A stretch of 47,096 nucleotides of DNA, from positions 1 through 47,096 of IMG/VR virus record IMGVR_UViG_3300044858_002674; one strand, written 5' to 3'. The notes beneath the pieces are model-generated. The model did not search any database, was not told the origin of the DNA, and worked only from the letters and a program-made list of their open reading frames with translations. This document shows, one piece after another, positions 5,312-27,026 of the stretch (position 1 is its first letter; every line of letters starts with the position of its first letter). Source of the stretch: a virus. The translations under genes were made by a program, and so were the position numbers.

Positions 5312-5317
5312 TAATTA

Positions 5318-5785: not shown

Positions 5786-6123
5786 TTAATAAAGTAAAAA
5801 ACTTCTCTCAAAATAGGCATGCTAATATGTCTAGAGAGACGTATTTAGATATGTGTGAACAGTTAGGTTCAGAACCTATAGAGGAAGAAATCCCTGTAGA
5901 GTTAATGGACTTACCTGAGGAAGCTCAAGAGGCTTGGACAATTTATTGCTACTTACCTGATAGGTATGATTCCTTCAGCGGGCATTATTTTGGTAAAGCT
6001 ATTGAAAACATATCTAATCTATTCGAACTGTTTGGTGTAACAGATAGGATAACTGTATTAAGAATAGTTACCTTATTTGATCGTCAGGAAACTGAACAAA
6101 TAAATAGTAAGAAAAAGAAATGA
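5761..6123 (+). CDS. Tail assembly chaperone, -1 frame extension (GT-like)
   Basis: This is the downstream part of the frameshift product. After slippage at 5755-5761 the ribosome reads SEVQFEELINKVKNFSQN, then continues through NMSRETYLDMCEQLGSEP to the stop at 6121-6123. The long form would be about 253 residues (133 from the first frame, 120 from this one). An internal ATG at 5827 has no convincing ribosome site and is unlikely to be used. In lambda the T part of GT contacts tail tube subunits and recruits them to the tape measure; the same role is inferred here from position and frame layout. The tape measure gene starts nine bases downstream. Confidence 0.75.
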   Translation, partial: SEVQFEELINKVKNFSQNRHANMSRETYLDMCEQLGSEPIEEEIPVELMDLPEEAQEAWTIYCYLPDRYDSFSGHYFGKAIENISNLFELFGVTDRITVLRIVTLFDRQETEQINSKKKK

Positions 6124-11610: not shown

Positions 11611-11612
11611 AA

Positions 11613-12536
11613 ATGACAGCGTTTATAGAAGATGCACGTTTTCCTACTAATATATCTAAGGGGGCCCTTGGTGGCCCTCAGTTTAGTACGGATATAGTAA
11701 GTACAGCCTCTGGCTTTGAGAAAAGAAATATTAATTGGGCTAAGTCAAAAGCTAAGTACGAGGTGTCTCATGCAGTTAGAACAGAGGCTGAGTACGCTCA
11801 GCTTCTAGCTTTCTTTAATATAGCTAGAGGGCGCGCAAATGGTTTTAGGTTTAAAGATTGGATGGACTATAAGGTATCAAGTACAGAAGGTAGAGTAACT
11901 GGGGCTTTAGAGGCCTTAGATGGGTCTCTAAACTCTTTACAGGATGGTTATAAGTATTATCAACTTGCTAAACTATATAAATTTGGTATTGTTACTTCTG
12001 ACTACTATTTAAGAAACATACGTAAACCTATAAGTACTATAACAGTAAGTAGAAATGGTACTCCAATTGCTATACATGGTAGTACTGCTGGTTTAATAAA
12101 TAATATTAATTATGCAACTGGTGTAGTCACTTTCAATCTTAGTAATAGTTTTGTACTTCAAAATAATACTATTACTAAAGGAGCTACAACAAAAGTATAT
12201 CTACAAGGAAATCAAGTCAGTACATTACCAATAGGTTCTAAACTATACTTTGAATCTGATGTAAATATACCTGAATTAAAAGATACACGACATGTAGTTA
12301 GTGGAGTTTCATATACAACATATACTGAAGTTACATTAAGTACTAATAGTACTAATTATACCGGCACTACTATTAGCGGTAGTTTAAGTAAATATCAACA
12401 AGGTAATGAAATACTTACCTGGACTGGTGAATATGATATACCATGCAGGTTCGATATAGATTCAATGGAAGGATCATTAGATACTCACATATCTAGTTCC
12501 TGGTCAAATATCCCAATTGTGGAGTTAAGAGTATGA
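11613..12536 (+). CDS. Distal tail / baseplate protein, DUF2460 (GTA gp12-like)
   Basis: This is a 307-residue protein. The start (DARFPTNISKGALGGPQF), the segment EYAQLLAFFNIARGRANGFRF followed by KDW, and YLRNIRKPISTITVSRNG are hallmarks of DUF2460. This is the baseplate family of gene transfer agents and lambda-like phages of Alphaproteobacteria. The C-terminal YDIPCRFDIDSM is also typical. Residues ~178-258 are an extra beta-rich insert (LPIGSKLYFESD, VTLSTNST) between the usual 'TGVVTF' and 'DIPCRFD' segments. Family members are usually near 200-210 residues, so the insert explains the extra length. The gene overlaps the DUF2163 gene by four bases. Confidence 0.85.
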   Translation: MTAFIEDARFPTNISKGALGGPQFSTDIVSTASGFEKRNINWAKSKAKYEVSHAVRTEAEYAQLLAFFNIARGRANGFRFKDWMDYKVSSTEGRVTGALEALDGSLNSLQDGYKYYQLAKLYKFGIVTSDYYLRNIRKPISTITVSRNGTPIAIHGSTAGLINNINYATGVVTFNLSNSFVLQNNTITKGATTKVYLQGNQVSTLPIGSKLYFESDVNIPELKDTRHVVSGVSYTTYTEVTLSTNSTNYTGTTISGSLSKYQQGNEILTWTGEYDIPCRFDIDSMEGSLDTHISSSWSNIPIVELRV

Positions 12537-14119
12537 AAACTATACCAGTAGCAATGGATACTCACCTATTAGGTGATGTAACCACTTTAGCATGGTGCTG
12601 GAAAGCAACTAGAAAAGATGGTCAAGTATTTGGATTTACAACTCACGATGTAAATTTAATTATAGACGGAGTAGTTTACTATGCTGAAACTGGATTAAAT
12701 GCTACAAATGCTCAAGCAAAAATAGGTACAAGTGTTGATAACTTAGAAGTAGCTGGTATGTTAGATTCTAGTACTATTACTGAGCAAGATTTAAGATCAG
12801 GCATGTGGGACTTATGTAATATAGAAGTATTCATAGTAAATTGGAAAGATGTTACTCAGAAATTAATTATACAGGCCGGAACACTAGGCGATGTAACAAT
12901 TAAGAAACAGCAGTTCATCGCTGAGATGCGTAGTTTATCACAATTTCTACAGAATACTATAGGTAGAATTATGACTAAGAGGTGCGATGCTAGCTTTGGA
13001 GACTCTAGATGCAAGATGCCACTAGCTACATATACACGTACTTCTTCAGTTTCTGGTATAGTTGATTATACTACCATTAATACCCCGGACAACTTAAGTA
13101 TTAGCGGGTCAATAACAGATTCCACATTTACTAATGCTATTTTAGCTATGCCTATGGATGGTGTAGATAACGGCACTTCTTTTACAGATAATATAGGAAA
13201 GATTATTACTAGAACCGGTACTGCTATAGTTACTAAAACTAGTAATAAAGTATTTGGTACAGCAGCAGCTTATAACCCAGGTAATGTTACTGGTAGTTAT
13301 TTAAGTGCGGCTGCTTCTACTGATTTTATACTACATCCTAGTGACTTTACTATAGAATTTTGGTTAAATCCATTGAGTAATCCACCTGTAGCAGGTGCAT
13401 TACTTTGTGCTGGCGGCGGGGCTGTAGCTTGGAATTCTACTACGGGTATTCATTGGTATGTACAAACTTTACCCGGAAATTTATTACAGTTTTATTGGTA
13501 TGATGGTAGTGTTGGTACATACTCAGTAGCTACACCTATTACGCTAAATACTTTTCAACATATAGCTATAGAGAGCTATCTAGGGACTACTACAATATAT
13601 TTAAATGGTATAGCACAACAATCTAATACTAATCCTATGCCAATTATACCAAGTACTACGCCTTCTTTACATATATTTAGTATTCCAGGCGAAAATGCGG
13701 CCAACTATATGCCAAATTGCTATTTAGACGAACTCAGAATTACGAAGGGAGTAGCAAGATATCAAGGTCAGTTTATACCCAAGTACTACCCCTACACTCA
13801 GTCTACCAACACAGTACCCCAAATTATAGCGAATGGAAAATTGACCTGGGCTTCAGGATTAAATAGGGGGGCTAGTATGGAAGTTAAATCTGTTGGTAGT
13901 TCCACTATATCACTAGCTTTGCCAATGGCTAATGATGTATCAATAGGAGATACTTTTACTATAAGTTCAGGTTGTGATAAAAACTTTGATAGTCCTGCTG
14001 GATGTAGCAGTTTCATATTATCTCCAGGTAATGCTACCACAGGAAATCAGATAAATTTCAGGGGTTATCCACATATACCAGGTATGGACAAAGTAATGGA
14101 GTATCCAAATGCAAAATAA
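12533..14119 (+). CDS. Tail tip protein, DUF2163 with inserted LamG-like domain
   Basis: This is a 528-residue protein. Residues 1-165 match the DUF2163 N-terminal half (FGFTTHDVNLIIDGVVYYAE, DLRSGMWDL, then RCDASFGDSRCKMPL). Residues ~425-528 match its C-terminal half (SGLNRGASMEVKS, SGCDKNFDSPAGCSSF, NFRGYPHIPGMDKV). The two halves are normally close together (family length ~290 residues). Here they are separated by a ~220-residue concanavalin/LamG-like domain (residues ~201-423: AILAMPMDGVDNGTSF, FTIEFWLNP, LDELRITKGVARY). LamG folds often bind glycans, so a surface-binding role of the insert is inferred. The protein belongs to the hub/baseplate complex with its neighbours. Confidence 0.85.
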   Translation: MKTIPVAMDTHLLGDVTTLAWCWKATRKDGQVFGFTTHDVNLIIDGVVYYAETGLNATNAQAKIGTSVDNLEVAGMLDSSTITEQDLRSGMWDLCNIEVFIVNWKDVTQKLIIQAGTLGDVTIKKQQFIAEMRSLSQFLQNTIGRIMTKRCDASFGDSRCKMPLATYTRTSSVSGIVDYTTINTPDNLSISGSITDSTFTNAILAMPMDGVDNGTSFTDNIGKIITRTGTAIVTKTSNKVFGTAAAYNPGNVTGSYLSAAASTDFILHPSDFTIEFWLNPLSNPPVAGALLCAGGGAVAWNSTTGIHWYVQTLPGNLLQFYWYDGSVGTYSVATPITLNTFQHIAIESYLGTTTIYLNGIAQQSNTNPMPIIPSTTPSLHIFSIPGENAANYMPNCYLDELRITKGVARYQGQFIPKYYPYTQSTNTVPQIIANGKLTWASGLNRGASMEVKSVGSSTISLALPMANDVSIGDTFTISSGCDKNFDSPAGCSSFILSPGNATTGNQINFRGYPHIPGMDKVMEYPNAK

Positions 14120-14501
14120 TCTAGTAGAAATAGCTAGAGGATGGTTAGGAGTTCCGTTTAGACACCAAGGTAGAAATCGCTTAGGAGTAGACTGTGGTGG
14201 TCTACTAATTTGTGTTGGTGAAGAAGCAGGAATGCAAATTATACACCCTGGTGCTTATAGTATGAGCCCAGACCCCAAATTGATAGAAGAGACACTATTA
14301 TTGCATTGTACTAAGATACCTAATAGTGAAAGGCAATCTGGTGACGTATTATGGTTTTCTTTTGCTGGCGAGCCTAGGCATGTAGGGCTGTGCTCAGATA
14401 TAGGTGTAATTCATGCGTGGGCTAAACCAAATAAAGTAGTAGAACATAGACTAGATGATATATGGCTTAGTAGACTAGTTGGAACTTATAGGATAAAGTA
14501 A
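14109..14501 (+). CDS. NlpC/P60-family tail peptidase
   Basis: This 130-residue protein has the NlpC/P60 layout: RGWLGVPFRHQGRNRLGVDC contains the catalytic Cys in VDCGG. The catalytic His lies in PRHVGLC, and an HAW strand follows. It corresponds to GTA gp14 and to lambda gpK-like tail peptidases, thought to cleave peptidoglycan locally as the tail penetrates the envelope. The gene overlaps the DUF2163 gene by 11 bases and ends four bases before the first hub gene, the standard order of this tail module. Both key residues are present, so the enzyme is probably active. Confidence 0.88.
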   Translation: MQNNLVEIARGWLGVPFRHQGRNRLGVDCGGLLICVGEEAGMQIIHPGAYSMSPDPKLIEETLLLHCTKIPNSERQSGDVLWFSFAGEPRHVGLCSDIGVIHAWAKPNKVVEHRLDDIWLSRLVGTYRIK

Positions 14502-14505
14502 AACT

Positions 14506-16389
14506 ATGGCACAAATAGTATTGGTAGCAGCTGCAGAGGCTTTTGCAGTTTCAGCAGGTCTTGGTTACTTAGCCACTACAGCTTTAACAGTTGCTGCTAC
14601 GTATGTTGGTAGCGCAGTAGATAGAATGCTGTTCGGTAGTAAAGTAAACGTACAAGGCCCTAGACTACAAGATTTAAGTCTGCAAACTAGCACTGAAGGT
14701 GCTAATTTACCAATAGTATATGGCACAATAAGAATAGCAGGTAATGTTATCTGGAGTACTGGATTAACAGAAACTTCAACTACTGAGAGTATTGGAGGCG
14801 GAGGTAGCGGTGGTGGAGGGGGTAGTAGTTCTACTACGTATAGTTATAGTACTGATTGTGCTGTAGCCTTATGTGAAGGTACTATAACTGGAGTACGTAG
14901 AATATGGGCAGATACTAAACTTATATATGATGTTGGTAGTAGTGCTACATTAGAAACTCTACAGGCTAGTGCCGTAAATAATATTCGATTTTATACTGGT
15001 TCGGAAACACAACTCTGCGATCCTTTAATTCAAGCAGTTGAGGGTACTGATTTAGCATACAGGGGTACTGCATATGTAGTATTTGAAGACTTTCAATTAG
15101 CTAACTATGGTAATCGTCTACCTAACTTTAGTTTTGAGGTTGTTAAGAATGGTACTACTAGTTATAAATCTAGTAAAAGACACAATACAGCCAATAGTAT
15201 TACGTTTAGTAATAAGTCTACAATGACTAAAATTGATGAATATAATAATATGCATATAGTAGTACTAGGTACTAATAATTATTACTATTACTACTTACTC
15301 GGTACTAATGATAGTCAGATTAAGCTGCAAAAATCATTTATAAATAATGGTGTAGCACCACCCGCTAATTTTCCCTTAACTCAAAAGTCTTACAGTAGTA
15401 CGCCAGGAATATTTTATCATCCAGGATGGAATAGCTCAGTGCTAGCTTTTTCTAGTACAGATGAGAGTCCAGTAAGAGCAATATATCTACCTAACGAGAA
15501 TAACTGGTATACTCGTATTACTGGAGTATGCGAAAAAAACGGTATAATATACATTATAGGTAAAAGCACCACAAGTGGTAATTCTCCCCAGTATCTAAGA
15601 GTATACGTAGGTACATTAGGTACTTATACTACGTCTTATACGGATGTCAATACTATAATTACTGCTAGTAATCTAAATACTATGCCACAAACAATTAGTA
15701 GTAGTAACTATGGAGACATAATTGATGTATATGATGAAGGTATTATATGTTTTAATACTACAAATAATACTGTATATCGCTTTGATAGTAATAACATATA
15801 TGTAGATTCTATCAGTCTTAGTCCTTATGTAAATGGTGCTAATCCAATATTAATAGGGTTCGATTCATATTATTCTGCTATATATATACCAGGTACAGGA
15901 GACAGAATAAAAAGATTAGACTTTAAAAATCCATATTCTATCGTTGATCAAGCAGTATCTGCGCCATTACCTTCTTATTTTGTATTAAATAACACTCTTA
16001 TAGTACCATCCCTAATATTTAAGGATGATATATATTATGTTTATTATATAGGTAGTAATGACTCAAATTCAGGTAATACCGCAACTTTTAGTACCATACC
16101 TTTAGTAGCCACAAGTAGTCCTACGCTAAAATCGGTAGTTGATGATATTGTTACCAAAACTCCAATATCAGCAAGTAAAATTAACTTCGCCGCTCTTAGT
16201 GGTGATACACTTAGAGGCTACGCTAGTAGAACATCTACAAATGCTGCTGGTATGTTAGAGTCACTTATTACAGGGTATAATTTTGATTTAGTAGAAGAAA
16301 ATGGTACTCTAATGGCTAAAAAGCGTGGTACTAGTACATCCTCAAGAAGTATAAATAGTAATGATTTAGGAGCTACAATAGATGGCTAG
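14506..16389 (+). CDS. Tail tip hub paralogue 1 (gp15/J-like, C-terminal half missing)
   Basis: This is a 627-residue protein. Residues 1-222 are the N-terminal module of gp15/J-type tail tip proteins: an Ala-rich hydrophobic start, QGPRLQDLSLQTSTEGANLP, VYGTIRIAGNVIWSTGL and a Gly-rich linker. Then come SYSTDCAVALCEGTITG, RRIWADTKLIYD and PNFSFEVVKNG. Residues ~223-535 are a repeated beta pattern like a propeller (IIYIIGK, GIICFNTTNNTVYRF, AIYIPGTGDRIKRLD). The last ~90 residues (SSPTLKSVVDDIVTKT, then YNFDLVEENGTLMAKK) form a module shared with the next two genes. The canonical C-terminal half is absent. The stop overlaps the start of paralogue 2, so the two are likely coupled. Confidence 0.82.
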   Translation: MAQIVLVAAAEAFAVSAGLGYLATTALTVAATYVGSAVDRMLFGSKVNVQGPRLQDLSLQTSTEGANLPIVYGTIRIAGNVIWSTGLTETSTTESIGGGGSGGGGGSSSTTYSYSTDCAVALCEGTITGVRRIWADTKLIYDVGSSATLETLQASAVNNIRFYTGSETQLCDPLIQAVEGTDLAYRGTAYVVFEDFQLANYGNRLPNFSFEVVKNGTTSYKSSKRHNTANSITFSNKSTMTKIDEYNNMHIVVLGTNNYYYYYLLGTNDSQIKLQKSFINNGVAPPANFPLTQKSYSSTPGIFYHPGWNSSVLAFSSTDESPVRAIYLPNENNWYTRITGVCEKNGIIYIIGKSTTSGNSPQYLRVYVGTLGTYTTSYTDVNTIITASNLNTMPQTISSSNYGDIIDVYDEGIICFNTTNNTVYRFDSNNIYVDSISLSPYVNGANPILIGFDSYYSAIYIPGTGDRIKRLDFKNPYSIVDQAVSAPLPSYFVLNNTLIVPSLIFKDDIYYVYYIGSNDSNSGNTATFSTIPLVATSSPTLKSVVDDIVTKTPISASKINFAALSGDTLRGYASRTSTNAAGMLESLITGYNFDLVEENGTLMAKKRGTSTSSRSINSNDLGATIDG

Positions 16390-18934
16390 CATGGTATTAT
16401 CAACAGTAGGCAATATTCTTTTACCTGGTATAGGTGGTATCATTGGGGGCTATATTGGTGGTATTGTAGATAGGAAGCTATTTGGGCCTAAAGCACCAAA
16501 AACTTATGGACCTAGATTACAAGATTTAATCGTGCAAACTAGCACCGAAGGTGCAAGTTTGCCAATAGTTTATGGTACAATGAGAATAGCAGGTAATGTT
16601 ATATGGAGTACTGGGTTAACTGAGTCTTCAACTACTGAGAGTAGCGGTGGAGGCGGTGGTAGTGGAGGCGGTGGTGGAGGCGGTGGCAGTCATACTACTT
16701 ATACATACAGTAGTGACTGCGCTGTAGCTATATGTGAAGGTACTATAACTGGAATACGTAGAATATGGGCTGATAGTAAACTAATTTATGACGTTGGTAA
16801 AGCAGTATCCCAAGATCCGTACTGGGACAATGTAGTTCTAGCGATGCACATGGATGGAGTTGATAATGCTACTTCATTTATTGATGAAAAAGGCAAAGTA
16901 GTTGCTAGGTATGGCAATACTGTTACTAAGACTAGTGTAGCTAAGTTTGGTACTGCGGCAGCTTACTTTGATGGAAATGGTGATTATCTTACTATACCTG
17001 ATAGTATGGATTTCAATTTTGGTTTAGGAGATTTTACAGTTGAGTGTTGGATAAATATTCAAGCAATTGGTCCAGGCTACCAAGCAATTTTATACAGAGG
17101 ATCAAATGGTGTAACATATAATTGCTTCTACATTCAGATAGATCCTAGCGGTACTGTGGCTGGATCAATTGGTGACTCTCTAGGGGTAAGTGCTACGGTA
17201 GTAAGTTCATCTAATGCTATTATAGCAGGGGCTTGGATTCATGTAGCCTTAGTTAGGTATAGTGGTACTTTACAGCTATTTATAAATGGTATAGGTACTA
17301 ACACAAGTAGTGCATCATCAGTTGATATACTTTCACCCTCAGGCCCCGTATTTAGTATAGGTGCTTTATACGGTGGATCAGCTTGGTATTTAAATGGCTA
17401 TATTGATGACCTACGTATCACCAAAGGTGTACCCCGCTATACAGCAAATTTTACACCACCAACTAAAGCATTTCCTGGAGCACCCACTGATAATATAGAA
17501 AAGTTACAGGTTAGTGCAAAAAATAACATTCGATTCTACACGGGTTCAGAAACGCAGCTTTGTGATCCTTTAATTCAAGCAGTTGAAGGTACTGATTTAG
17601 CGTATAGAGGTACCGCGTATGCAGTATTTGAAGACTTCCAATTAGCTGATTATGGTAATCGTTTACCTAACTTTAGTTTTGAGGTTATTAAGAGTGGTAG
17701 TATTTCTGGGCTTGCTAAAGGGTTTGAAAGTGCTACGGCTCCAACATCCGGGCAGATAGTTAGCGTAAAGCATAAATCAGGCGAAATGATTAAGGTTATT
17801 ACGGTTGGCCCGGTGTATCCCTGGAACGGAACATCCTACCCAACAGAATTAAATTATTGGTACATTGATAGTAATGGGGTTTGGATAAATAGATTTAAAA
17901 CATACTTACATTATATATATGGGTTTTATAATTGGGGTACATCTTTTGGATTTACAAATACGTATGACTATGAGGATGACACCTTTGTTTTATGTTACCC
18001 GGAGTCTACTTCTAAAGCATTTTTAATTACACTTAACGGTGAAAGCCTAATTATAAAAAAACTTCACCAAAGCGGTCTTAGCAACAACTACAATTTTGTT
18101 AATGCTGATTATGTTGCCTACGCAACGTACTCAACATTTAATATTAGCAAGCGTGCCAACCTTACCCCGGCAACGGTCACTATGGGATCATGGGGTGGTT
18201 ATGCAGGATATGGTCTATCCGACAGTATGGAATTTTTCGAGGCTGGTCATTATGCAACGATTACACTAACTGGTGAAGCCTACCGTGGCGCTATTGTTAT
18301 ATCGGATGATTATATTTACGTGCTAACACATGGAGCTCCCGGATACACGTACCGTATAAATAAGGCCACCGTTTTAACCACCGGTGGAACATTTACCGAA
18401 GCCGCGCTATCACCTGATATTTATCGATATGGTGGTTTTATTGGCATAAGACTAGGTCAAGGCCTTGAGCCAAATAGTGTCTTATTACTAAACGATACGA
18501 CGATAGTAAAAACACTAGACTTTGTTACGTGGACTACTATTGGCACAAGCCCTTATGCATTTAATGATACAAGACATTCGCTAGGTCAAATAGCTGACAA
18601 TCTATATTGGGTAAATAACGATACAAAGACTGCAATATTAAGCAAGGGTTTGATAACTAAATCAACAGTAGCCCTACAATCGGTAGCAGAGGATATAACT
18701 GCAAAATCAAAACTTCCAAGTACTTCTTATACTTATACAGCTTTAAGTAATCAAAATGTAAAAGGTTTTGTAGTATCTAAAGTTATGTCAGCCAAAGCAG
18801 CTTTAGACTCCTTACAGGCTGGATATAATTTCGAGCTAGTAGAAGAAGCTGGGAAAATAATTGCTAAAGATAAGTCTATAGCAACTAATAATGCAACTTT
18901 AACAAATAGTACCCTAGGTGCTGAGCAGATCTAA
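16382..18934 (+). CDS. Tail tip hub paralogue 2 with LamG insert and foreign-looking centre
   Basis: At 850 residues it has the same N-terminal module as paralogue 1 (GPRLQDLIVQTSTEGASLP, YGTMRIAGNVIWSTGL, Gly linker, SDCAVAICEGTITG). A LamG-like domain at ~150-365 (VLAMHMDGVDNATSF, FTVECWINI, YIDDLRITKGVPRY) is spliced in just after KLIYDVG, exactly where paralogue 1 runs straight on. The module then resumes (IRFYTGSETQLCDP). A central domain (~437-760) follows, with codon use unlike its surroundings. The C-terminal shared module is ALQSVAEDITAKS to the end. It lacks the canonical C-terminal half of gp15. It overlaps paralogue 1 by eight bases. A third hub gene follows after 11 bases. Confidence 0.82.
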   Translation: MASMVLSTVGNILLPGIGGIIGGYIGGIVDRKLFGPKAPKTYGPRLQDLIVQTSTEGASLPIVYGTMRIAGNVIWSTGLTESSTTESSGGGGGSGGGGGGGGSHTTYTYSSDCAVAICEGTITGIRRIWADSKLIYDVGKAVSQDPYWDNVVLAMHMDGVDNATSFIDEKGKVVARYGNTVTKTSVAKFGTAAAYFDGNGDYLTIPDSMDFNFGLGDFTVECWINIQAIGPGYQAILYRGSNGVTYNCFYIQIDPSGTVAGSIGDSLGVSATVVSSSNAIIAGAWIHVALVRYSGTLQLFINGIGTNTSSASSVDILSPSGPVFSIGALYGGSAWYLNGYIDDLRITKGVPRYTANFTPPTKAFPGAPTDNIEKLQVSAKNNIRFYTGSETQLCDPLIQAVEGTDLAYRGTAYAVFEDFQLADYGNRLPNFSFEVIKSGSISGLAKGFESATAPTSGQIVSVKHKSGEMIKVITVGPVYPWNGTSYPTELNYWYIDSNGVWINRFKTYLHYIYGFYNWGTSFGFTNTYDYEDDTFVLCYPESTSKAFLITLNGESLIIKKLHQSGLSNNYNFVNADYVAYATYSTFNISKRANLTPATVTMGSWGGYAGYGLSDSMEFFEAGHYATITLTGEAYRGAIVISDDYIYVLTHGAPGYTYRINKATVLTTGGTFTEAALSPDIYRYGGFIGIRLGQGLEPNSVLLLNDTTIVKTLDFVTWTTIGTSPYAFNDTRHSLGQIADNLYWVNNDTKTAILSKGLITKSTVALQSVAEDITAKSKLPSTSYTYTALSNQNVKGFVVSKVMSAKAALDSLQAGYNFELVEEAGKIIAKDKSIATNNATLTNSTLGAEQI

Positions 18935-18945
18935 ATAGGAAAATT

Positions 18946-20889
18946 ATGGCAAGTTTAGTATTATCTCAGGCAGCTACTAGTGCCTTAGCTCCTTCATTGT
19001 ACGGGGCTATGGCTAGTGGGGCTAGTGTGGCAGCTTCGGGGGCTTTATGGTCAGCTGCTCAGGCTATAACTGGAGCACTAGGTACTATAGCAGGTAGCGC
19101 GTTAGATAGAATGCTATTTAATGAAAAGCAAGACTACCAGGGGCCACGCCTAGGAGATTTAAGTGTGCAAACTAGCACCGAAGGTGCAAGTTTGCCACTA
19201 GTTTATGGTACAATGAGAATAGCAGGTAATGTTATCTGGAGTACAGGGCTAACGGAAGCTTCAAAGAAAAAAGATGTAGGGGGAGGTAGTGGAGGGGGTG
19301 GAAATAGCTATACTACCTATAGTTATAGTACAGATTGTGCTGTAGCTTTATGTGAAGGTACTATAACCGGAGTAAGTAGAATATGGGCTGATACTAAACT
19401 TATTTATGATGCATCATACACAGCTAAACTAGAAGCTCTACGGGCTAGTAACAAGAGTAAAATTCGAGTTTATACTGGATCAGAAACACAACTCTGCGAT
19501 CCTTTAATTCAAGCAGTTGAAGGTACTGATTTAGCGTATAGAGGTACTGCATACGTAGTATTTGAAGATTTACAGTTAGCAGATTATGGTAATCGTTTAC
19601 CTAACTTTAGTTTTGAGGTTGTTAAGAACGGTAGTTTATCAGGGTATAACATTAATTCTACTAGCGAATTAATATCTTCTAGAATATTTAATACTGGATA
19701 TGATATTTATGGTAATCTTTATGGGTACTCTGTAGTAACTAATATAGCTAGTTATGTTGCACCAACTTATGGAAATGCTTCTTATTATAAAATTAATACT
19801 CAAGGCATTAAAACATTAATGTTTAGTGCCGATTTAAGTGTAATAACAGATGGCTACATGAATATACTTACAAGCCAGGGTACCTCATACACCACTTCAC
19901 TAATTTTATATAAAGCACCGGAAGTACACATAATAATTAGAGAATTCTATGGAATAAAATCCTCTACTGGTACTTATAATGTTGGATGTTTAGTTCATAT
20001 TGGTAATACAGAGGGTACTAATTTTCCTTACTACCCAAGTTATGCGATTTCAGGACCTGGGGCCCCCGGGGGCTGGGGGGCTACCATAGCTTTTAAAAGT
20101 ACAACAGAAGGTATCTGTTCCTGTGGTATAGAGGGCCCACTTGTCTATTTTAATGGTTCGGTATCTACTACAATTTGGCCATCATATTCTTATGGTCTAG
20201 GTGTAACAGCAATAGCATTTTTTAGTAATAAATTTTTAGTAGTAAGGGGTAGTTGGGGTCCAAATACTTTTTATTGGTATGACTATAATTTTAATTTAAT
20301 TGAATCAGCAGTATCGACAGTTGTAGGAGGTAAGAACTACTTTACATTTAATGATAAAGATAACTGTATTTATAGGATAAACTCATTTAATAGTCTATTA
20401 AAGGTAGGACCAGTAGATAGCCTTACTACATTTAATAATTATGAGATAATAAGTATAGGTGGTAGTATTAGTTTACCAGGAAGTCTGGTAATGTCTGATA
20501 ACTCAACAACCTCTGTATATAGCGAAACACCAAATATAATAAAATTCAGCCAAAATTTTCATACACCTAATGTGTTCAGAGAACTAATAGCTACTACGAA
20601 TACTGTATCTAGTAGTAGTCCCACACTAAAATCGGTAGCAGAGGATATAACTGCAAGATCAGGATTACCTATTTCAAAATATAGCTATTCCAATCTTACT
20701 GATGTAGTAAGAGGGTATCACATAGCCAAGAAAATGCCAATCAAGGATGCACTAGAACCCTTGACCGCAGCGTATAGATTTGATATAATAGAAGAAGATT
20801 CAAAAATAGTAGGAAGACCTTATTTACCCTCTAGCACTAGTGTTAGAACTCTAACAATACAGGAAGTTGGTACACAAAATTATGATTGA
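18946..20889 (+). CDS. Tail tip hub paralogue 3 (N-terminal half of the complete gp15/J-like protein)
   Basis: This is a 647-residue protein. It carries the shared N-terminal module (QGPRLGDLSVQTSTEGASLP, VYGTMRIAGNVIWSTGL, a shorter Gly linker, STDCAVALCEGTITG). A third, unrelated central beta-rich domain (residues ~230-555) and the shared C-terminal module (SSPTLKSVAEDITARSGLP, AYRFDIIEEDSK) follow. Its stop codon overlaps the start of the next gene. That gene encodes the region which in ordinary gp15/J proteins follows directly on the same chain. A GGAAAATTATG leader precedes the start. Of the three paralogues, this is the one physically adjacent to the C-terminal half. Confidence 0.82.
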   Translation: MASLVLSQAATSALAPSLYGAMASGASVAASGALWSAAQAITGALGTIAGSALDRMLFNEKQDYQGPRLGDLSVQTSTEGASLPLVYGTMRIAGNVIWSTGLTEASKKKDVGGGSGGGGNSYTTYSYSTDCAVALCEGTITGVSRIWADTKLIYDASYTAKLEALRASNKSKIRVYTGSETQLCDPLIQAVEGTDLAYRGTAYVVFEDLQLADYGNRLPNFSFEVVKNGSLSGYNINSTSELISSRIFNTGYDIYGNLYGYSVVTNIASYVAPTYGNASYYKINTQGIKTLMFSADLSVITDGYMNILTSQGTSYTTSLILYKAPEVHIIIREFYGIKSSTGTYNVGCLVHIGNTEGTNFPYYPSYAISGPGAPGGWGATIAFKSTTEGICSCGIEGPLVYFNGSVSTTIWPSYSYGLGVTAIAFFSNKFLVVRGSWGPNTFYWYDYNFNLIESAVSTVVGGKNYFTFNDKDNCIYRINSFNSLLKVGPVDSLTTFNNYEIISIGGSISLPGSLVMSDNSTTSVYSETPNIIKFSQNFHTPNVFRELIATTNTVSSSSPTLKSVAEDITARSGLPISKYSYSNLTDVVRGYHIAKKMPIKDALEPLTAAYRFDIIEEDSKIVGRPYLPSSTSVRTLTIQEVGTQNYD

Positions 20890-22384
20890 TGAAACGAAAG
20901 AACTAATAACCTCAGTTAGAAAAAATGAACTAGAATTCCCATCAGAAGTATCTGTGAGTTATTCTAATGTAGATAATGACTATCAGATTGGAACAGAGTA
21001 TGCTAGAAGACTTACTGCTACTCATGAGAATAAAGTTGCAATAAGCCTACCAATTGCGCTAACTTCTTCTGAAGCGGCTAAAATTGCTGATATAGCATTG
21101 AATTCTGCATGGTATTCTGGAAGATATTCTTATAGTTTTTCTACAACTTATGTACACTTAAAGTTATCACCAGGAGATTTAATTACTATACCGTTAAATA
21201 CTGGTAGAACTGAATTAGTAAAGATAACCAGTATAGAGTATGGCCCTACCGGTTTAATAAACTATGAAGCAGTACCAGAAATACCTTCTTTATATAACTC
21301 TTTAGTTTCTGGTAATAATACTACATATACACCTACTACGTTAACTATAGCGGGTCCAAGTATACTATCAATGCTGGACTGTTGTATTCTAAGAGACGAA
21401 GATAATAGCCTTGGATGGTACTACGGTATTGGTGGATATTCGACTGGTTGGGCTGGTGCCACACTATTCAAATCATTAGATGGTGGAGCTACGTATCTAA
21501 CCTCTGGTTACGTACCTAGTTTATTAGCAACACACACAGGATCTACTTCAAATGCACTACCTAGTGGTAGTACTACTTGTTGGGATAATATAAATACACT
21601 AACCGTAAGTATGAATACTGGTTCATTATCTTCTGCTACTGATTTAGCGGTTTTGGGTGGAGCAAATTCTATTTTAGTTGGTGCTCCAGGTAGATGGGAA
21701 TTAGTACAGTTCAGAACAGCTACTCCAGGGGCTTCTGCAGGAAGTTATACATTAAGTGGTTTATTGAGAGGTAGAAAGGGTACAGAATGGGCTGTAGGTA
21801 CTCATCAGGCTACAGATACTGTAGTTTTACTTGGTGCTACAATTAATAATCTAATAGTACCTTCTGCTGAATTAAACTCATCTATAGCATATAAATGTGT
21901 ACCAGTTGGTGAAAGTCTAGAGGGTTCTGCTACAGTTAACAAAACTTATGTAGGGGAAAGATTAAGACCTTTAACACCTATTAATATTAGTGCGTATAGA
22001 ACAGCCACTACTGGAGCATATGATATAATTATTAAATGGGTACGTAGAGATAGAATAAACGCTGGTTGGAATGACTATTCTGACATACCACAGAGTGAAG
22101 TGGTAGATAAATGGAGAATAGAATTTTTTAAAACTAACGCTTTTGATACAATTGCAAATAATAGAACTGATTTTTATAATACTAATAGTACTACACTAGA
22201 TGCATTAGTAAGCGGTTCACCTAATTTTACAATAGTTGGAGATGGTTCATATAAGTATAACTATACCTCTGCTAGTCAATTAATAGATGGTAGTCAAAAA
22301 ATTACTATCTATATAAGAATATCACAAGTTTCAGCTACGGTAGGTTTTGGCAGATTCCAAGACATAATGCTAACAGTAGCATAA
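20882..22384 (+). CDS. Separate C-terminal half of gp15/J-like tail hub
   Basis: This is a 500-residue protein from the ATG at 20882. A TTG at 20867 is possible but sits too close to the AGGAAG motif. It shows the second half of GTA-gp15-type proteins: EFPSEVSVSYSNVDNDYQIG, YARRLTATHENK and LKLSPGDLITIP. Then come YTLSGLLRGRKGTEWAVGTH followed by DTVVLLG, and a fibronectin-like tail (LRPLTPINISAYR, IIIKWVRRDR). In most relatives this is one chain with the N-terminal module. Here the split is an ATGATTGA overlap with paralogue 3, in the +1 frame relative to it. It is likely made by coupled re-initiation and assembles with one or all of the three N-terminal paralogues. Confidence 0.82.
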   Translation: MIDETKELITSVRKNELEFPSEVSVSYSNVDNDYQIGTEYARRLTATHENKVAISLPIALTSSEAAKIADIALNSAWYSGRYSYSFSTTYVHLKLSPGDLITIPLNTGRTELVKITSIEYGPTGLINYEAVPEIPSLYNSLVSGNNTTYTPTTLTIAGPSILSMLDCCILRDEDNSLGWYYGIGGYSTGWAGATLFKSLDGGATYLTSGYVPSLLATHTGSTSNALPSGSTTCWDNINTLTVSMNTGSLSSATDLAVLGGANSILVGAPGRWELVQFRTATPGASAGSYTLSGLLRGRKGTEWAVGTHQATDTVVLLGATINNLIVPSAELNSSIAYKCVPVGESLEGSATVNKTYVGERLRPLTPINISAYRTATTGAYDIIIKWVRRDRINAGWNDYSDIPQSEVVDKWRIEFFKTNAFDTIANNRTDFYNTNSTTLDALVSGSPNFTIVGDGSYKYNYTSASQLIDGSQKITIYIRISQVSATVGFGRFQDIMLTVA

Positions 22385-22393
22385 AGGATAAAA

Positions 22394-23593
22394 ATGGCAA
22401 ATTCAACATTAACAGCGCAGCTAACGGAGATAGTATCTTCTCAAGCTCAAAAAGAAATAACAGCTAATGCTAATTTCAGAGCGGCTAGTCCATCTATGTC
22501 CTTTGCGAGAAAGGACATACCTACATCTGGTCTTAGCTGGCAATATTATGGTGGCACTATACTAGTAGATAATGCGTCTACTCAAGTAGCTGATGGCACT
22601 ATAACAAGTATACCTCCTAATAGAGCTGCGAATATTCATCTAGAAATAGGTAGAGTAAGTGCTACTACTACTAACATTACTGGTTTTAGTATAGCAGCGG
22701 CAGCACAAATTACCGTAGCTACTAATAGTTTCGCTATTGGAGATGTAGGATATTTAAGTACAGGAATTGCTTCTCCAACTAATGCGCAAGGTACTTTTTT
22801 TAAGGTAACTACTATAAGTGGATCTGGGCCTTATACATTAACTACTGATATAGTTTCTACTGGATGGAATGCATGGACTTCTGGGGGCACTATAGCTAAA
22901 GTTACTCCGTGGGAAGGTACTGCTATAGTAGGTAAAACTCATGTGTTCCACTTCCCAGTGTGTATGCCCTTATATACGCTCACTACAGATGCGAGTAATG
23001 TAACTACGTGGACTGACTATAGAGGAGCATTCCCTATAGCATTTAACTTAAACTATGCACTGAATAGCTATAACTTTCTACGAGTGAATGGTGTAGAACA
23101 AGCAGCTAACCTTGGAATAGGAAGACAGGCTCCAGGCCCTATGTTAGCAACTTATAATGCTAATAGTGTTCAGGCAGATGGTGGTGCAGATTATTATGGG
23201 GCTAGAGCACGTGGTACTTTATCCTCACCAACAATAGTATTGAATGGAGATACTTTATCAGCTGATTTTGCTGCTGGATATGATGGAGTAGACTATGCTT
23301 TAGGTGGTTCTGCTAAATTTATTGTAGATGGCACACCAGGTGCAGATGATATGCCTACTAGATATGAAGTAGCTATATCTAACGATGGTTCTCAAACTCC
23401 TACTACTAGATTTACTTTAAAGTCTACTGGTCCTATATTTAATAGTGATAATATTAATATAGCTACTGAGAAAACCCCAGCCTCTGCAACTGCTACGGGT
23501 ACTAAAGGACAAATATGTTGGGATGCTAGCTATATATATGTATGTATAGCTACTGACGTATGGAAACGCGCAGCTATAGTAACATGGCCATAG
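22394..23593 (+). CDS. Tail fibre / receptor-binding candidate
   Basis: This is a 399-residue protein. The start (AQLTEIVSSQAQKEITANAN) is like DUF2793-type tail proteins that follow gp15/J genes in phages of Alphaproteobacteria. Residues ~100-170 contain the same small beta pattern as the tail tube insert (FAIGDVGYLSTG, GTFFKVTTISGSGPYTLTTD, GGTI). The C-terminus (TGTKGQICWDASYIYVCIAT followed by WKRAA) is the standard end motif of many phage fibres and spikes. The placement just after the hub genes supports a receptor-binding or shaft role. No chaperone or peptidase domain was seen. The next gene starts inside its last codons. Confidence 0.7.
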   Translation: MANSTLTAQLTEIVSSQAQKEITANANFRAASPSMSFARKDIPTSGLSWQYYGGTILVDNASTQVADGTITSIPPNRAANIHLEIGRVSATTTNITGFSIAAAAQITVATNSFAIGDVGYLSTGIASPTNAQGTFFKVTTISGSGPYTLTTDIVSTGWNAWTSGGTIAKVTPWEGTAIVGKTHVFHFPVCMPLYTLTTDASNVTTWTDYRGAFPIAFNLNYALNSYNFLRVNGVEQAANLGIGRQAPGPMLATYNANSVQADGGADYYGARARGTLSSPTIVLNGDTLSADFAAGYDGVDYALGGSAKFIVDGTPGADDMPTRYEVAISNDGSQTPTTRFTLKSTGPIFNSDNINIATEKTPASATATGTKGQICWDASYIYVCIATDVWKRAAIVTWP

Positions 23594-23838
23594 TAGACAT
23601 AGTTAAGGATGAGCCTGGTGGCAAATTATCTAGTTCAAGAGTATGGTTTAATATAGCAAATACGGCTGCAACAACTGTATTTCTATATGCTTCATATAAG
23701 GCATCATTAGCTACCACAGTTAATTTAGAAGGATTAGCGTGGTATACACTAGCTTATATGGGAATAGTAACCGGCAACAAATTTGCAAATAAATTTCTAG
23801 GAGCTAAGTATGGAACTAATAACAATACTGAAAAATAA
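23584..23838 (+). CDS. Holin candidate (small membrane protein)
   Basis: This is an 84-residue protein from the ATG at 23584, chosen because it overlaps the fibre stop (ATGGCCATAG). An upstream TTG would add eight residues but no better ribosome site. Two hydrophobic stretches are visible: VWFNIANTAATTVFLYASY and LAWYTLAYMGIVTGNKFA. A lysine-rich end follows. Size, two membrane segments and position just before the spanin and endolysin genes suggest a holin. The family was not recognised by sequence, so the call rests on context. Confidence 0.55.
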   Translation: MAIVDIVKDEPGGKLSSSRVWFNIANTAATTVFLYASYKASLATTVNLEGLAWYTLAYMGIVTGNKFANKFLGAKYGTNNNTEK

Positions 23839-24163
23839 ATACTTCCAAATACTTATGTCAATATTAGTAGCTTTAGTATTAGGGTTCACTAGTGGTTATA
23901 CTTATAAAGCAGATAAGGTCGAACTAGAAAGACTACAACAATTTGAACTTATTCAAGGTAAGCTAGATAAAGTCCGCCAATTTTCAGAAACAGAAGCTAT
24001 ACTAGCACATACTAATATGCTGGAAATAGACTCTAGACTTTCTGTTATTATGGGTAAGGTAAAACAGAAACCACTTACCAATGTACCTTGTACACCTTCT
24101 GAGGACTTTTCAAAAATATGGAGTGAAATAGATAATGTTACTAAAAAGCCTGATACTGAGTAG
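23810..24163 (+). CDS. Inner-membrane spanin (Rz-like)
   Basis: This 117-residue protein has a short N-terminus, one membrane span (FQILMSILVALVLGFTSGY) and a long periplasmic helix with coiled-coil character (ADKVELERLQQFELIQGKLD onward). This is the design of Rz-type i-spanins. The start codon lies inside the end of the holin candidate, with GGAG six bases upstream. The o-spanin gene begins inside its last 29 bases in another frame, the typical Rz/Rz1 overlap. The pair would span the periplasm and fuse inner and outer membranes at lysis, which points to a Gram-negative host. Confidence 0.82.
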   Translation: MELITILKNKYFQILMSILVALVLGFTSGYTYKADKVELERLQQFELIQGKLDKVRQFSETEAILAHTNMLEIDSRLSVIMGKVKQKPLTNVPCTPSEDFSKIWSEIDNVTKKPDTE

Positions 24164-24392
24164 TGCATTACTTGCTGGCTGCTGTGCTCCAGTACCTAAA
24201 GCACCACAATTTGATTCTTACCTAATCTCTAGCTGTACACAGTCTATATTAGAAAAACCATTTACTAGTTGGGAGGATGTATTAGCACAAAAGGCTAAAG
24301 ATAGGAAGGCTTTTGAAGAATGTTATGGTAAGCATGAAGGTTTGGTAAACTCGTACAAAAATTATTTAAAGGAATTCAATGCAACTAAGTAA
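24135..24392 (+). CDS. Outer-membrane spanin lipoprotein (Rz1-like)
   Basis: This is an 85-residue lipoprotein. A signal peptide with a clear lipobox (LLAG followed by Cys16) begins MLLKSLILSSALLAGCC. The mature part starts with a Pro-containing linker (APVPKAPQF) and ends in a charged helix. It starts inside the i-spanin gene and ends 14 bases into the endolysin gene. It would be lipid-anchored in the outer membrane and bind the i-spanin in the periplasm. The mature protein is longer than lambda Rz1. Confidence 0.85.
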   Translation: MLLKSLILSSALLAGCCAPVPKAPQFDSYLISSCTQSILEKPFTSWEDVLAQKAKDRKAFEECYGKHEGLVNSYKNYLKEFNATK

Positions 24393-24831
24393 AAACTTCA
24401 CATTAAAAGAGTTGACTAAAAGTGATTATGCTAGTCGTAATAGTATAGATAATACACCATCTAGTTTAGTAGTTAATAATTTAATGCTACTAACTACGAA
24501 GCTATTGCAACCTATTAGAGATGAATTTGGTACAGTTATAATTAATAGTGGATATAGAAGTCCACAATTAAATGTAGCTATAGGTGGGTCAAAAACTTCT
24601 GATCATGTACTTGGTCTTGCAGCTGATATTGAGGTACCTAATTTATCCAACTATATGTTAGCTAAGTGGTGTGAACAAAACTTAAAGTTTAAGCAACTTA
24701 TACTAGAATTTTATACTCCTGGTGATGTAGAGTCGGGATGGGTACATATCTCTTATGGTAGTAAACAGCAAGTATTAACAGCAGTAAAAGAAAATGGTAG
24801 TACCATTTATAAGATAGGTCTTGTAGCATAA
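24379..24831 (+). CDS. Endolysin, M15-family peptidase
   Basis: This 150-residue protein has the M15 zinc-peptidase pattern: INSGYRSPQLNVAIGG, then SDHVLGLAADIEV with the first His and Asp zinc ligands. WVHISYG near residue 128 holds the last His. FTLKELTKSDYA at the N-terminus is common in this family. The enzyme would cut peptide cross-links in peptidoglycan (L-Ala-D-Glu or D-Ala-type peptidase). No signal peptide is present, so release through the holin is expected. It is the last gene of the + strand block and ends at the bidirectional terminator. Confidence 0.88.
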   Translation: MQLSKNFTLKELTKSDYASRNSIDNTPSSLVVNNLMLLTTKLLQPIRDEFGTVIINSGYRSPQLNVAIGGSKTSDHVLGLAADIEVPNLSNYMLAKWCEQNLKFKQLILEFYTPGDVESGWVHISYGSKQQVLTAVKENGSTIYKIGLVA

Positions 24832-24868
24832 AAAAAGCCCTAACAGAATAATCTGTTAGGGCTTTTTT
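24831..24868. terminator. Bidirectional Rho-independent terminator
   Basis: An 11-bp perfect stem GCCCTAACAGA / TCTGTTAGGGC with a four-base loop is flanked by an A6 run on the left and a T6 run on the right. It therefore works on both strands. It lies exactly where the + strand lysis operon and the - strand replication operon converge. Confidence 0.95.
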
Positions 24869-24869
24869 A

Positions 24870-25052
24870 TTACATCAATTCTAGCTCAGCTTCGGGCCAC
24901 CACATTGTTTGTACACTACCATTTTCTGTAACATATTCTATTTCTGATACTAGTGCACCTGTTCTATTCTGATATAGACCAATCACATAGCCACCAATAC
25001 CTGTACGACCATGATATACTTCACTACCAATATTAAACTTAAATTCTACCAT
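24870..25052 (-). CDS. Small SH3-like hypothetical protein
   Basis: This is a 60-residue protein from the ATG at 25052, chosen over a GTG at 25058 because GGGAG is well spaced from it. The sequence is beta rich: FNIGSEVYHGRTGIGGYVIG, then IEYVTENG and MWWPEAELELM. The spacing recalls small phage proteins with a KOW/SH3-like fold (xxxGxxVxxxxxGxxGxV), but no function is known. It is the last gene of the - strand operon, ends directly at the shared terminator, and overlaps the previous gene by seven bases. Confidence 0.55.
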   Translation of the reverse strand: MVEFKFNIGSEVYHGRTGIGGYVIGLYQNRTGALVSEIEYVTENGSVQTMWWPEAELELM

Positions 25053-25276
25053 ATACACTCCCTAGATTCAATACTTTTTAAATAATTAATATCATTAGAC
25101 GTTAGTTCAGAACTATACATTTCTAATAACTCTTTTGGTGTCATACATATATCATAATCTGCATGACTCGGCAGCCTTGTTTCTAGCTTGAAACACCAGC
25201 AATTACTACTACCAGTACAGTACAAGGCTTTCGGCCTTAACTGTAAAGGTTTTAGTTCTTCAAGTAACTTATCCAT
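25046..25276 (-). CDS. Hypothetical protein with CWC-like cysteine cluster
   Basis: This is a 76-residue protein. It contains YCTGSSNCWCF, which resembles the cysteine-rich CWC motif, and a further Cys in YDICMTP and RECIW. It may bind a metal, but the family match is weak. The start overlaps the stop of the ribonucleotide reductase gene (TAATG), so it is translationally coupled to that gene. A link to reductase function, for example redox partnership, is only a guess from the coupling and the cysteines. Confidence 0.5.
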   Translation of the reverse strand: MDKLLEELKPLQLRPKALYCTGSSNCWCFKLETRLPSHADYDICMTPKELLEMYSSELTSNDINYLKSIESRECIW

Positions 25277-25863
25277 TATCTAATTGGACAAGCACCGGTA
25301 GCACACCCCTCATCACGTAATTCATCAAAGGAATTAGCTGACTCCAAGTCCACTTCTAGTAATGTAGCAACGTACCTATTATACTCGTCTTCTGTTACTA
25401 CCTCTTGAGGTAGATATAAATAACCAAGATCTTTTGCAGTTTTAGTTGGGTCAGTTCTATATAAGAAGCTAACACCTACATAAATATCCCAATTATCAAA
25501 TAACCAATGTACAATATCCTCAACTTCACTAGGATCATAACTAATAGTTACAGAAGTATTCTGCTGCGTCCAATTCTTCTGTAGCAGTTTATAACGCTCT
25601 AGCTGATCAATAGCACTTTCTAGATTTACTTCTTTTCCATTTACTTTATGGAAAGGAACATCATCCCAGCGAACTGGAAAGGTTACTAGAACACCTGAAT
25701 CATCAGTTGGGTGATTAATAACGTTATAGTTAGCCTCACGTAACTTTTCTACTACAGGGTCGAATTTACTAAATTGTACATTATTAAAAATGTACTTACC
25801 TAAAGGCATATGGGCACCTTCTGTTGTGTCCATAATCTTACTTAATGTACCGCTTGGTTTTAC
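25276..25863 (-). CDS. nrdJ: Class II ribonucleotide reductase, exon 2
   Basis: This is the 3' exon (195 codons plus stop) of the reductase that begins at 28406. It resumes with VKPSGTLSK followed by TEGAHMP, a conserved block near the substrate phosphate site of monomeric class II triphosphate reductases. It ends in GCATGACPIR, whose two cysteines form the C-terminal redox pair that re-reduces the active site. An in-frame ATG at 25833 could look like a gene start, but it lies inside the conserved block and is not expected to be used. Splicing of the intron at 25864-27026 restores ..VTT-VKPSG.. without a frameshift. The spliced protein would be 655 residues. Confidence 0.9.
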   Translation of the reverse strand, partial: VKPSGTLSKIMDTTEGAHMPLGKYIFNNVQFSKFDPVVEKLREANYNVINHPTDDSGVLVTFPVRWDDVPFHKVNGKEVNLESAIDQLERYKLLQKNWTQQNTSVTISYDPSEVEDIVHWLFDNWDIYVGVSFLYRTDPTKTAKDLGYLYLPQEVVTEDEYNRYVATLLEVDLESANSFDELRDEGCATGACPIR

Positions 25864-26020
25864 CAGTTATGTTACGAATAAGTCGATTCCACTTATTCTC
25901 TATATATCTCTATATAGCTCAGACTATATCATCTACTACTTGAGTAGTTACCCGCTTCGAGTCTCTTGACCCTACTCCATAATGGATAGTCGTTGAAGCT
26001 TACCCATAGATTAATAATCC

Positions 26021-26956
26021 TTAGGGTCTTGCCTGCTGATTGTCTGTTAGTCCAAGTTGCTTTTCTACTACCTTATATGTTTCCATTAAGGAGTCTGGAA
26101 CTTGGCTCTTGAGAGTTTCCAGCAATTCGAGTAATTTGCTATATTGAGTCGCCTCAATATGGACCTTAATACTTGAGTTTTTTGTATGAATAAGACCATG
26201 ACATGGCCTACATAATGTTAGTAAGTTTACCTCTTTATTAGCATCAATATAGTTTATAAATAAATTATAGTTAATTACATGATGTACTAATAAATCCTTA
26301 GTGCTATCACATATAGCACACTTACCATCTTTAGCAATTTTTAATTTTGATATAGAGTTCCAACCACCTAGCTTAGGTCTACCAGACATACCATGTAGAA
26401 ACTGTGGATTATTATCTCCAAGCATACTATCACTTCTATGCTTAACAGTCTCAACCACAGTTAAGTTATCTTCAAGCAGATTTAAGTAGTTACCATCTAT
26501 AGCTATTACTCTATAGTTATCAGGCAGATAACATTTATTATAAATCTCCCAAGCTACTATATGAGCTTTTACCTGATTAGAATCCTTATTACTTCTAGGA
26601 TGCCTAGGAAAGTTTATAACATATCTAATGTTAGTACCTGATTTATTAATCGTAGGCTTACTTAGTCTATCTAGTAGGTTTTCTACTAGATAGAGATTAT
26701 TCCAATATTCAGGCATACTTCTATCTAGCTGTAATTGAAATTTTCTATCTTTAGAAGACAATCTACTGTATGGTAGCTCACTTATTCCTAGAGTTTTATA
26801 AATCCTACTATAAACTGAACTATTTAACCTACTATCAGAAGTACTTAACCCTAATAGTTTGTGTAACTCAACTTGAGTTAACCCTTCACTAAATATTAGC
26901 TCCAGAACTCTATCTTTACCAAAATTGTTTATTGCTTTATCTACATTATACGTCAT
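26021..26956 (-). CDS. Intron-encoded HNH homing endonuclease
   Basis: This is a 311-residue protein wholly inside the group I intron. The N-terminus (residues ~10-50, including LTQVELHKLLGLS) is helix-turn-helix-like. A central DNA-contact region with HIVAWEIYN and DGNYLNLLEDNLTVVE follows. The C-terminal HNH zinc finger has CAICDSTKDLLVHHVI and LLTLCRPCHGLIH, with both CxxC pairs and the HH motif intact. It should cut intron-less nrdJ alleles near the insertion site so that repair copies the intron. A TTGAAA-17-TATAAT promoter and a GGAGG ribosome site precede it within the intron, so expression need not depend on nrdJ transcription. Confidence 0.88.
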   Translation of the reverse strand: MTYNVDKAINNFGKDRVLELIFSEGLTQVELHKLLGLSTSDSRLNSSVYSRIYKTLGISELPYSRLSSKDRKFQLQLDRSMPEYWNNLYLVENLLDRLSKPTINKSGTNIRYVINFPRHPRSNKDSNQVKAHIVAWEIYNKCYLPDNYRVIAIDGNYLNLLEDNLTVVETVKHRSDSMLGDNNPQFLHGMSGRPKLGGWNSISKLKIAKDGKCAICDSTKDLLVHHVINYNLFINYIDANKEVNLLTLCRPCHGLIHTKNSSIKVHIEATQYSKLLELLETLKSQVPDSLMETYKVVEKQLGLTDNQQARP

Positions 26957-26982
26957 AAAATTTTATTACCTCCATAAATATA

Positions 26983-27011
26983 ATTATACTTATAGTGGTT
27001 ATAAATTTCAA
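26983..27011 (-). promoter_or_regulatory. Sigma70-type promoter inside the intron
   Basis: On the - strand, TTGAAA (27006-27011) and TATAAT (26983-26988) are 17 bases apart. They are followed by GGAGG ahead of the endonuclease start at 26956. The -35 box begins 15 bases inside the intron, so the promoter travels with it. Confidence 0.6.
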
Positions 27012-27026
27012 GTACTTTTTTCGTTA

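What the first reader, a model, noticed from the sequence alone, without database searches (positions are those of the whole stretch)
14506..22384. Three tandem tail-hub paralogues with one shared C-terminal partner: a possible heterotrimeric receptor-binding tip
Three consecutive genes carry the same N-terminal gp15/J module and the same ~90-residue C-terminal module, but have three unrelated central domains. The canonical second half of gp15/J is encoded only once, as a separate gene after the third copy. In lambda-like phages and GTAs this hub protein is a homotrimer. Three paralogues of one N-terminal module suggest either a hub built from three different chains or alternative hubs sharing one C-terminal half. 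Each chain could show a different receptor-binding face. I do not know of a described phage with this layout.
Basis: partly seen in the sequence, partly recalled or inferred. Interest (0 to 1): 0.85.

Follow-up and report, generated by a model that had tools for sequence, protein, structure and literature searches.

The report
Triplicated, split phage tail-tip hub
This phage encodes the protein that closes the tip of its tail in two pieces, with three different versions of the front piece and only one back piece, so its normally uniform three-part tip may be built from different chains with different host-touching faces.

Summary
Genes g1, g2 and g3 (14506-20889) are tandem paralogues of the front half of the RcGTA "megatron" hub. 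g4 (ATG 20882) is the only copy of the back half. All three front chains end at the same loop inside the central (PF13550, gp27-like) domain. An AlphaFold2 model of g3 joined to g4 shows one domain built from both chains. A second IMG/VR contig carries the identical layout. The N-modules form one clade (100/100), are under purifying selection (dN/dS 0.18-0.26) and score like functional megatrons, so none looks like a pseudogene. Of 250 distinct sampled loci, 198 are single-chain. The 3 front: 1 back layout was found only in this phage, but a 2:1 split family (7 contigs) and tandem full-length duplicates occur elsewhere. Sister phages with 82-99% identical early proteins carry a lambda-type tip instead, so the whole tip was exchanged. 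The mechanism is inferred: three interchangeable front chains share one back chain, giving mixed tips. Obligate 1:1:1, separate homotrimers, and a g3-only hub with accessory g1/g2 remain open.

The parts
14506..16389 (+). g1, front chain 1 (627 aa): N-module (iris + adhesin-like) 14506-15162, central/peripheral domain about 15163-16104, T-module (first part of central domain) about 16105-16386
   Evidence: NF048004 GTA_megatron 1-205, 1e-71; phrog_4271; T-module HMM 54 bits; weak beta-propeller hint for the middle
16382..18934 (+). g2, front chain 2 (850 aa): N-module 16382-16837 and 17486-17707, T-module about 18650-18931; 8-nt overlap with g1 (16382-16389)
   Evidence: NF048004 3e-65; N-module HMM hits; T-module HMM 51.5 bits
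16814..17485 (+). LamG-like (concanavalin A-like) domain inserted inside the N-module of g2
   Evidence: PF13385 Laminin_G_3, 5e-21; insertion in the alignment
18946..20889 (+). g3, front chain 3 (647 aa): N-module 18946-19641, middle about 19645-20604, T-module about 20605-20886
   Evidence: NF048004 8e-75; T-module HMM 62 bits; PF13550 positions 3-50 at 20731-20880
20882..22384 (+). g4, single shared back chain (500 aa from ATG 20882): rest of PF13550 central domain (about 20885-21241) and fibre-binding part with Rcc01698_C (about 21536-21826); 8-nt overlap with g3
   Evidence: PF13550 48-164 and PF23666 4.5e-28; NF048004 842-1265; aligns to RcGTA megatron 846-1249, PDB 6tba
11613..12536 (+). 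Distal tail protein-like (DUF2460), same tip module
   Evidence: PF09343 1.5e-46
12533..14119 (+). Hub protein (phiJL001 Gp84-like), with a LamG insertion; expected neighbour of the megatron
   Evidence: PF09931 4.8e-54, PF09356, PF13385
14109..14501 (+). NlpC/P60 tail peptidase, directly upstream of g1
   Evidence: PF00877 3e-8, phrog_329
22394..23593 (+). Probable tail fibre downstream of g4
   Evidence: phrog_18345 / phrog_17312 tail fibre, tail protein

Best explanation
This is a split and triplicated megatron hub. The ancestral single-chain RcGTA-type megatron was cut in a loop of its central domain into a front gene and a back gene (g4), and the front gene was then duplicated twice. Each front chain brings the iris helix, the adhesin-like domain, its own peripheral domain and the first strands of the central domain. 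One g4 chain completes that domain and brings the fibre-binding part. In the C3 hub each of the three positions is then one front chain plus one g4. The most likely working is that g1, g2 and g3 are co-made and compete for three equivalent positions, so that tips carry mixed front chains (random mixtures or a preferred 1:1:1), each showing a different peripheral domain and so offering several adhesion surfaces on one tip. Shown here: the anatomy, the common descent, the common end point and the selective constraint. Inferred: the pairing with g4, the C3 symmetry (from homologues), mixing within one hub, and the adhesive role of the peripheral domains.
For: All four pieces match NF048004 GTA_megatron: 1-205 plus a second stretch for g1-g3, 842-1265 for g4. 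AF2 of g3 joined to g4 models the T-module and g4 with pLDDT mostly above 90 and puts the break in a strand-free stretch, residues 626-653. The model matches RcGTA megatron 6tba_8A at Z 29.2, rmsd 2.6 over 358 residues spanning 76-791, and gp27/VgrG-type hubs at Z 8-11 over about 82-786, so the hub fold is made of front chain plus g4. The T-module is complete in all three paralogues and ends at the same point. N-modules are one clade, 100/100, and T-modules one clade, 98/91. N-module dN/dS is 0.18-0.26, the HMM score is 249-253 against a family median of 258, and 37-39 of 42 conserved residues are kept. T divergence is normal for the N divergence when compared with different phages. g1-g2 and g3-g4 overlap by 8 nt and g2-g3 are 11 nt apart, so all four are likely on one message. 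RcGTA and R4C hubs are trimers of three megatrons.
Against: No multimer prediction, virion proteomics or structure is available. g4 has a poorly placed ribosome site (13 nt from the start) and overlaps g3. If it is made at or below the level of g3, it cannot partner an equal total of g1+g2+g3. g2 carries a large insertion and the three iris segments differ in length, which may favour one chain over another. Only one phage (two contigs) shows the 3:1 layout.
Confidence: 0.5

Rival explanations
1. Alternative homotrimeric hubs: each virion carries three copies of the same front chain with g4, so the burst is a mix of three virion types with different faces.
For: All three chains are intact and can supply the same half-domain. 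In Serratia T6SS, VgrG1 and VgrG2, which have a gp27-like hub fold, do not mix (PMC4924876).
Against: The N-modules are 74-78% identical and are encoded on one apparent operon, which makes mixing hard to avoid unless self-recognition exists. No switch was found (no invertible element was sought beyond repeats; the only group I intron is elsewhere).
Confidence: 0.2
2. g3 plus g4 is the only central hub. g1 and g2 are accessory tip proteins that dock around it (extra adhesins or a second layer) without needing g4.
For: g3 is next to and overlaps g4 and has the best T-module score (62 bits). In the 2:1 family of L135 the two N-modules are only about 39% identical and lack the T-module, which suggests two different places.
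Against: g1 and g2 keep the whole T-module up to the split point and the iris segment, neither of which an external adhesin needs.
Confidence: 0.2
3. g1 and g2 are redundant or decaying duplicates, or a recombination reservoir from which g3 is re-assorted.
For: Exact repeats of 23-50 bp between the paralogues would allow recombination.
Against: Purifying selection and full family-like scores in all three; the two contigs are identical, with no rearranged form seen.
Confidence: 0.08
4. The split between g3 and g4 is a programmed frameshift or a sequencing error, so g3-g4 is really one full-length megatron and g1, g2 are truncated copies.
For: g3 and g4 overlap in different frames and a one-base change would fuse them.
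Against: g1 and g2 end at the same homologous position. A second contig has the same junction. An ATG and an overlapping stop give an ordinary coupled start. No slippery site was seen by eye.
Confidence: 0.02

Closest known systems
RcGTA megatron (Rcc01698, g15; PDB 6tba/6teh) and phage R4C megatron (8gtc)
   Same: Same domain order: iris/penetration, adhesin-like, peripheral, central (PF13550), fibre-binding; same neighbours (DUF2460, Gp84-like hub, NlpC peptidase).
   Different: There it is one chain in a C3 homotrimer. Here it is cut inside the central domain, with three front genes and one back gene.
2N:1C split hubs (L129, L135, L137, L143, L145, L147, L149, IMG/VR)
   Same: More than one N-module gene followed by one back gene.
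   Different: Two front genes that are only about 39-40% identical; the first is the N-module alone (205 aa), the second has a Vgb-like propeller; neither carries the T-module; PF13550 is whole in the back gene.
Tandem full-length hubs: CcrColossus gp122/gp123, Erythrobacter phage XM05, and two hits per record in Caulobacter and Brevundimonas jumbo phages
   Same: Tandem megatron paralogues in one phage, N-modules 58-74% identical.
   Different: Each copy is complete with its own back half, and there are two, not three.
T6SS VgrG spikes with several VgrG paralogues
   Same: gp27-like hub fold; hetero-trimers proposed in V. cholerae and A. dhakensis (PMC8668125).
   Different: A secretion spike with whole single-chain VgrGs; later work ascribes the requirement to the effectors rather than to hetero-trimers as such.
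Lambda gpJ-type tail tip
   Same: PF13550 hub domain and distant fold match (8xcg, Z 17.7).
   Different: No FNIII-A_GpJ domain in g1-g4. Sister phages G001 and G003 carry this type of tip instead.

Membership tests
GTA/phage megatron (NF048004) | N-terminal iris + adhesin-like module | tested here: met
   g1, g2, g3 match positions 1-205 at 1e-65 to 1e-75; profile match to 6tba 1-204 at 2e-51
GTA/phage megatron (NF048004) | Central PF13550 and Rcc01698_C domains | tested here: met
   Met over two chains: PF13550 3-50 in g3, 48-164 in g4; PF23666 in g4
GTA/phage megatron (NF048004) | One polypeptide over the curated cut-off of 800 bits | tested here: not met
   g1-g4 score 242, 221, 252 and 221 bits each. 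So it is a split derivative, not a megatron gene as curated.
GTA/phage megatron (NF048004) | Gene context DUF2460 - Gp84-like hub - NlpC/P60 - megatron | tested here: met
   11613-14501 upstream of g1
GTA/phage megatron (NF048004) | C3 trimer in the baseplate | not testable with these tools
   No multimer prediction or particle data
Lambda gpJ | FNIII-A_GpJ domain (PF24801) and gpI partner | tested here: not met
   No PF24801 in g1-g4; present in sister phage G003
gp27/VgrG hub fold | Structural match over the two tube domains | tested here: met
   Mu gp44 Z 9.6-11.2, VgrG1 Z 8.3-9.9 over model residues about 82-786; gives fold, not function
Hetero-trimeric hub | Different chains in one trimer | not testable with these tools
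   Needs proteomics, pull-down or cryo-EM

The most novel reading that the evidence does not exclude
An obligate 1:1:1 hetero-trimeric siphophage hub: three non-identical front chains, each completed by the same g4, give a tail tip with no true threefold symmetry and three different receptor-binding faces.
Probability: 0.2. Interest if true: 0.8.

Novelty: new variant of a known kind. Interest (0 to 1): 0.55.

Why it matters
Hubs of long-tailed phages are known as homotrimers made from one long gene. A hub cut inside its structural core, with three front genes for one back gene, is a natural test of whether a phage can build a mixed tip and so carry several adhesion surfaces at once. Together with sister phages that carry a lambda-type tip on nearly the same genome, it also shows how freely whole tail tips can be exchanged and then diversified.

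Tried and rejected
Assembly or frameshift artefact: rejected, because a second contig is identical and all three paralogues end alike. Pseudogenes: not supported. Gene conversion of the N-modules: first suspected because N is 74-78% and T 30-42% identical, but dropped, since other phage pairs with the same N identity show the same T identity (median 0.42, 5-95% 0.30-0.69). Separate origin of the T-modules: first suspected from similar phmmer scores, but dropped because the T tree gives one clade, 98/91. Intron or trans-splicing of the hub genes: the only Rfam hit is a group I intron elsewhere. A closer relative with the 3:1 layout: not found in viral contigs, genome contigs or the listed phage records. 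Central domains: no family by Pfam, PHROGs or NCBIfam; AF2 of the g1 middle alone is poor (mean pLDDT 40) and its propeller-like matches are weak (E at best 1.5e-3), so the propeller is only a hint. Alignment A1 was too diverse for a contig scan.

Full report
Observation. The window is a 47,096-bp virus record. Genes g1 (14506-16389), g2 (16382-18934) and g3 (18946-20889) are tandem paralogues, and g4 (ATG 20882-22384) follows with an 8-nt overlap. The N-modules are 74-78% identical and the terminal T-modules 30-42%; the central stretches of 314, 314 and 320 aa share nothing detectable. A second IMG/VR contig, IMGVR_UViG_3300042556_001648, is identical over 10882-29354 with no gap.

Identity. 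All four proteins match the GTA megatron model: g1-g3 at 1-205 plus a second stretch, g4 at 842-1265. In RcGTA this protein has iris/penetration (1-46), adhesin-like (47-229), peripheral (230-744), central (745-984) and fibre-binding (985-1304) domains and forms a C3 core (PMC7296036); R4C has three hub and three megatron copies (PMC10276861). g4 aligns to RcGTA 846-1249, so the cut lies inside the central domain, about 100 residues from its start. The N-module aligns to 1-204. Upstream lie DUF2460, a Gp84-like hub and an NlpC/P60 peptidase, the expected neighbours.

The split. A profile of the T-module, made from single-chain homologues without the window, hits g3, g1 and g2 at 62, 54 and 51 bits, each almost full length and each ending at the same point, where the single-chain homologues have a loop of variable length. 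g3 and g4 were read as one chain through the junction and modelled with 80 relatives. The T-module and g4 come out as confident structure, with the junction at 647/648 in a strand-free stretch between strands 620-625 and 654-658; the central region (238-546) is not modelled. The model matches RcGTA megatron at Z 29.2 and gp27/VgrG-type hubs at Z 8-11 across residues 82-786, that is, across both chains. This is a single-chain model of a joined sequence; it shows fold compatibility, not that the two proteins bind.

Are all three real? N-module dN/dS is 0.18-0.26 with dS 0.64-0.70 (Nei-Gojobori). Scores against a family profile without the window are 249-253, against a family median of 258, and 37-39 of 42 conserved residues are kept. 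N-modules form one clade (100/100), T-modules too (98/91), so whole front genes were duplicated. T divergence for a given N divergence is that seen between hubs of different phages. The paralogues have therefore diverged as working hubs do.

How common? Of 250 distinct loci with an N-module, 198 have one chain; 11 have one N with the back part wholly or partly in another frame or gene; 29 show the N part only (24 of them cut by a contig end); 7 have two N genes and one back gene; 4 have two N and two back parts; one, this phage, has three N and one back gene. Some of the 11 may be sequencing frameshifts. The seven 2:1 loci are one family with a 205-aa N-only protein, a 543-aa N plus propeller protein, a 370-aa gene and a 545-aa back gene with whole PF13550. 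Tandem full-length hubs occur in CcrColossus and Erythrobacter XM05, and two hits per record in other Caulobacter and Brevundimonas jumbo phages; none of the phage records listed has three. Sampling is by pattern scan and is not exhaustive.

Setting. The early half of the window is most like T5-group phages at the DNA polymerase (44-45% identity). Contigs G001 and G003 have early and lysis-side proteins mostly 76-99% identical to the window (polymerase 98% and 94%) and similar head-side tail genes, but between the middle of the tape measure gene and the lysis genes they encode a lambda-type tip (gpJ with FNIII-A_GpJ in G003). The GTA-type tip was thus exchanged as a block.

Mechanism. In a C3 hub each position needs one N-module, one T-module and one back part. 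Three front genes with one g4 fit a hub in which front chains are interchangeable. Random mixing or a fixed 1:1:1 cannot be told apart here. Against equal use, the ribosome site of g4 is poorly placed and g4 overlaps g3, so g4 may be limiting. VgrG paralogues are a guide in both directions: hetero-trimers were proposed in two systems (PMC8668125) and excluded in another (PMC4924876).

Verdict. The anatomy is solid and unusual; the hetero-trimer is a good, untested hypothesis. It is filed as a new variant of the megatron hub, not as a megatron gene in the curated sense, because the one-chain criterion is not met.

Noticed in passing
window 6133-23593; L287-L290 (G001, G003): Sister phages share most early, head and lysis proteins with the window but carry a lambda-type tail tip in place of the GTA-type tip; the tape measure protein matches only over its first ~1030 residues (41-45%), so the block swap includes its C-terminal half.
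   Followed up: partly
window 25276-28406 (-): A ribonucleotide-reductase-like gene is interrupted by a group I intron (Rfam RF00028 at 25900-26180) that carries an HNH-type endonuclease gene (26021-26956); in sister phages G001 and G003 the gene is one 655-aa frame.
   Followed up: partly
L290 (G003) 1321-5871 (-): The gpJ of sister phage G003 contains a Hint/intein-like domain near its N-terminus (residues about 13-145).
   Followed up: no
window 12533-14119 and 16814-17485; G003 22215-25328: LamG-like domains are inserted in both the Gp84-like hub protein and g2, and related ones sit in a tail protein of G003 (31% identity), as if this domain moves between tail proteins.
   Followed up: no
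window 42399-44196 (-): A NAD-dependent DNA ligase-like protein appears to be encoded as two adjacent genes (252 and 332 aa); judged from the translations only.
   Followed up: no
L146 8896-15308: Two tandem hub genes that both have N-module and PF13550 but no Rcc01698_C domain; the second has an extra insertion next to the loop where the window's hub is split.
   Followed up: partly
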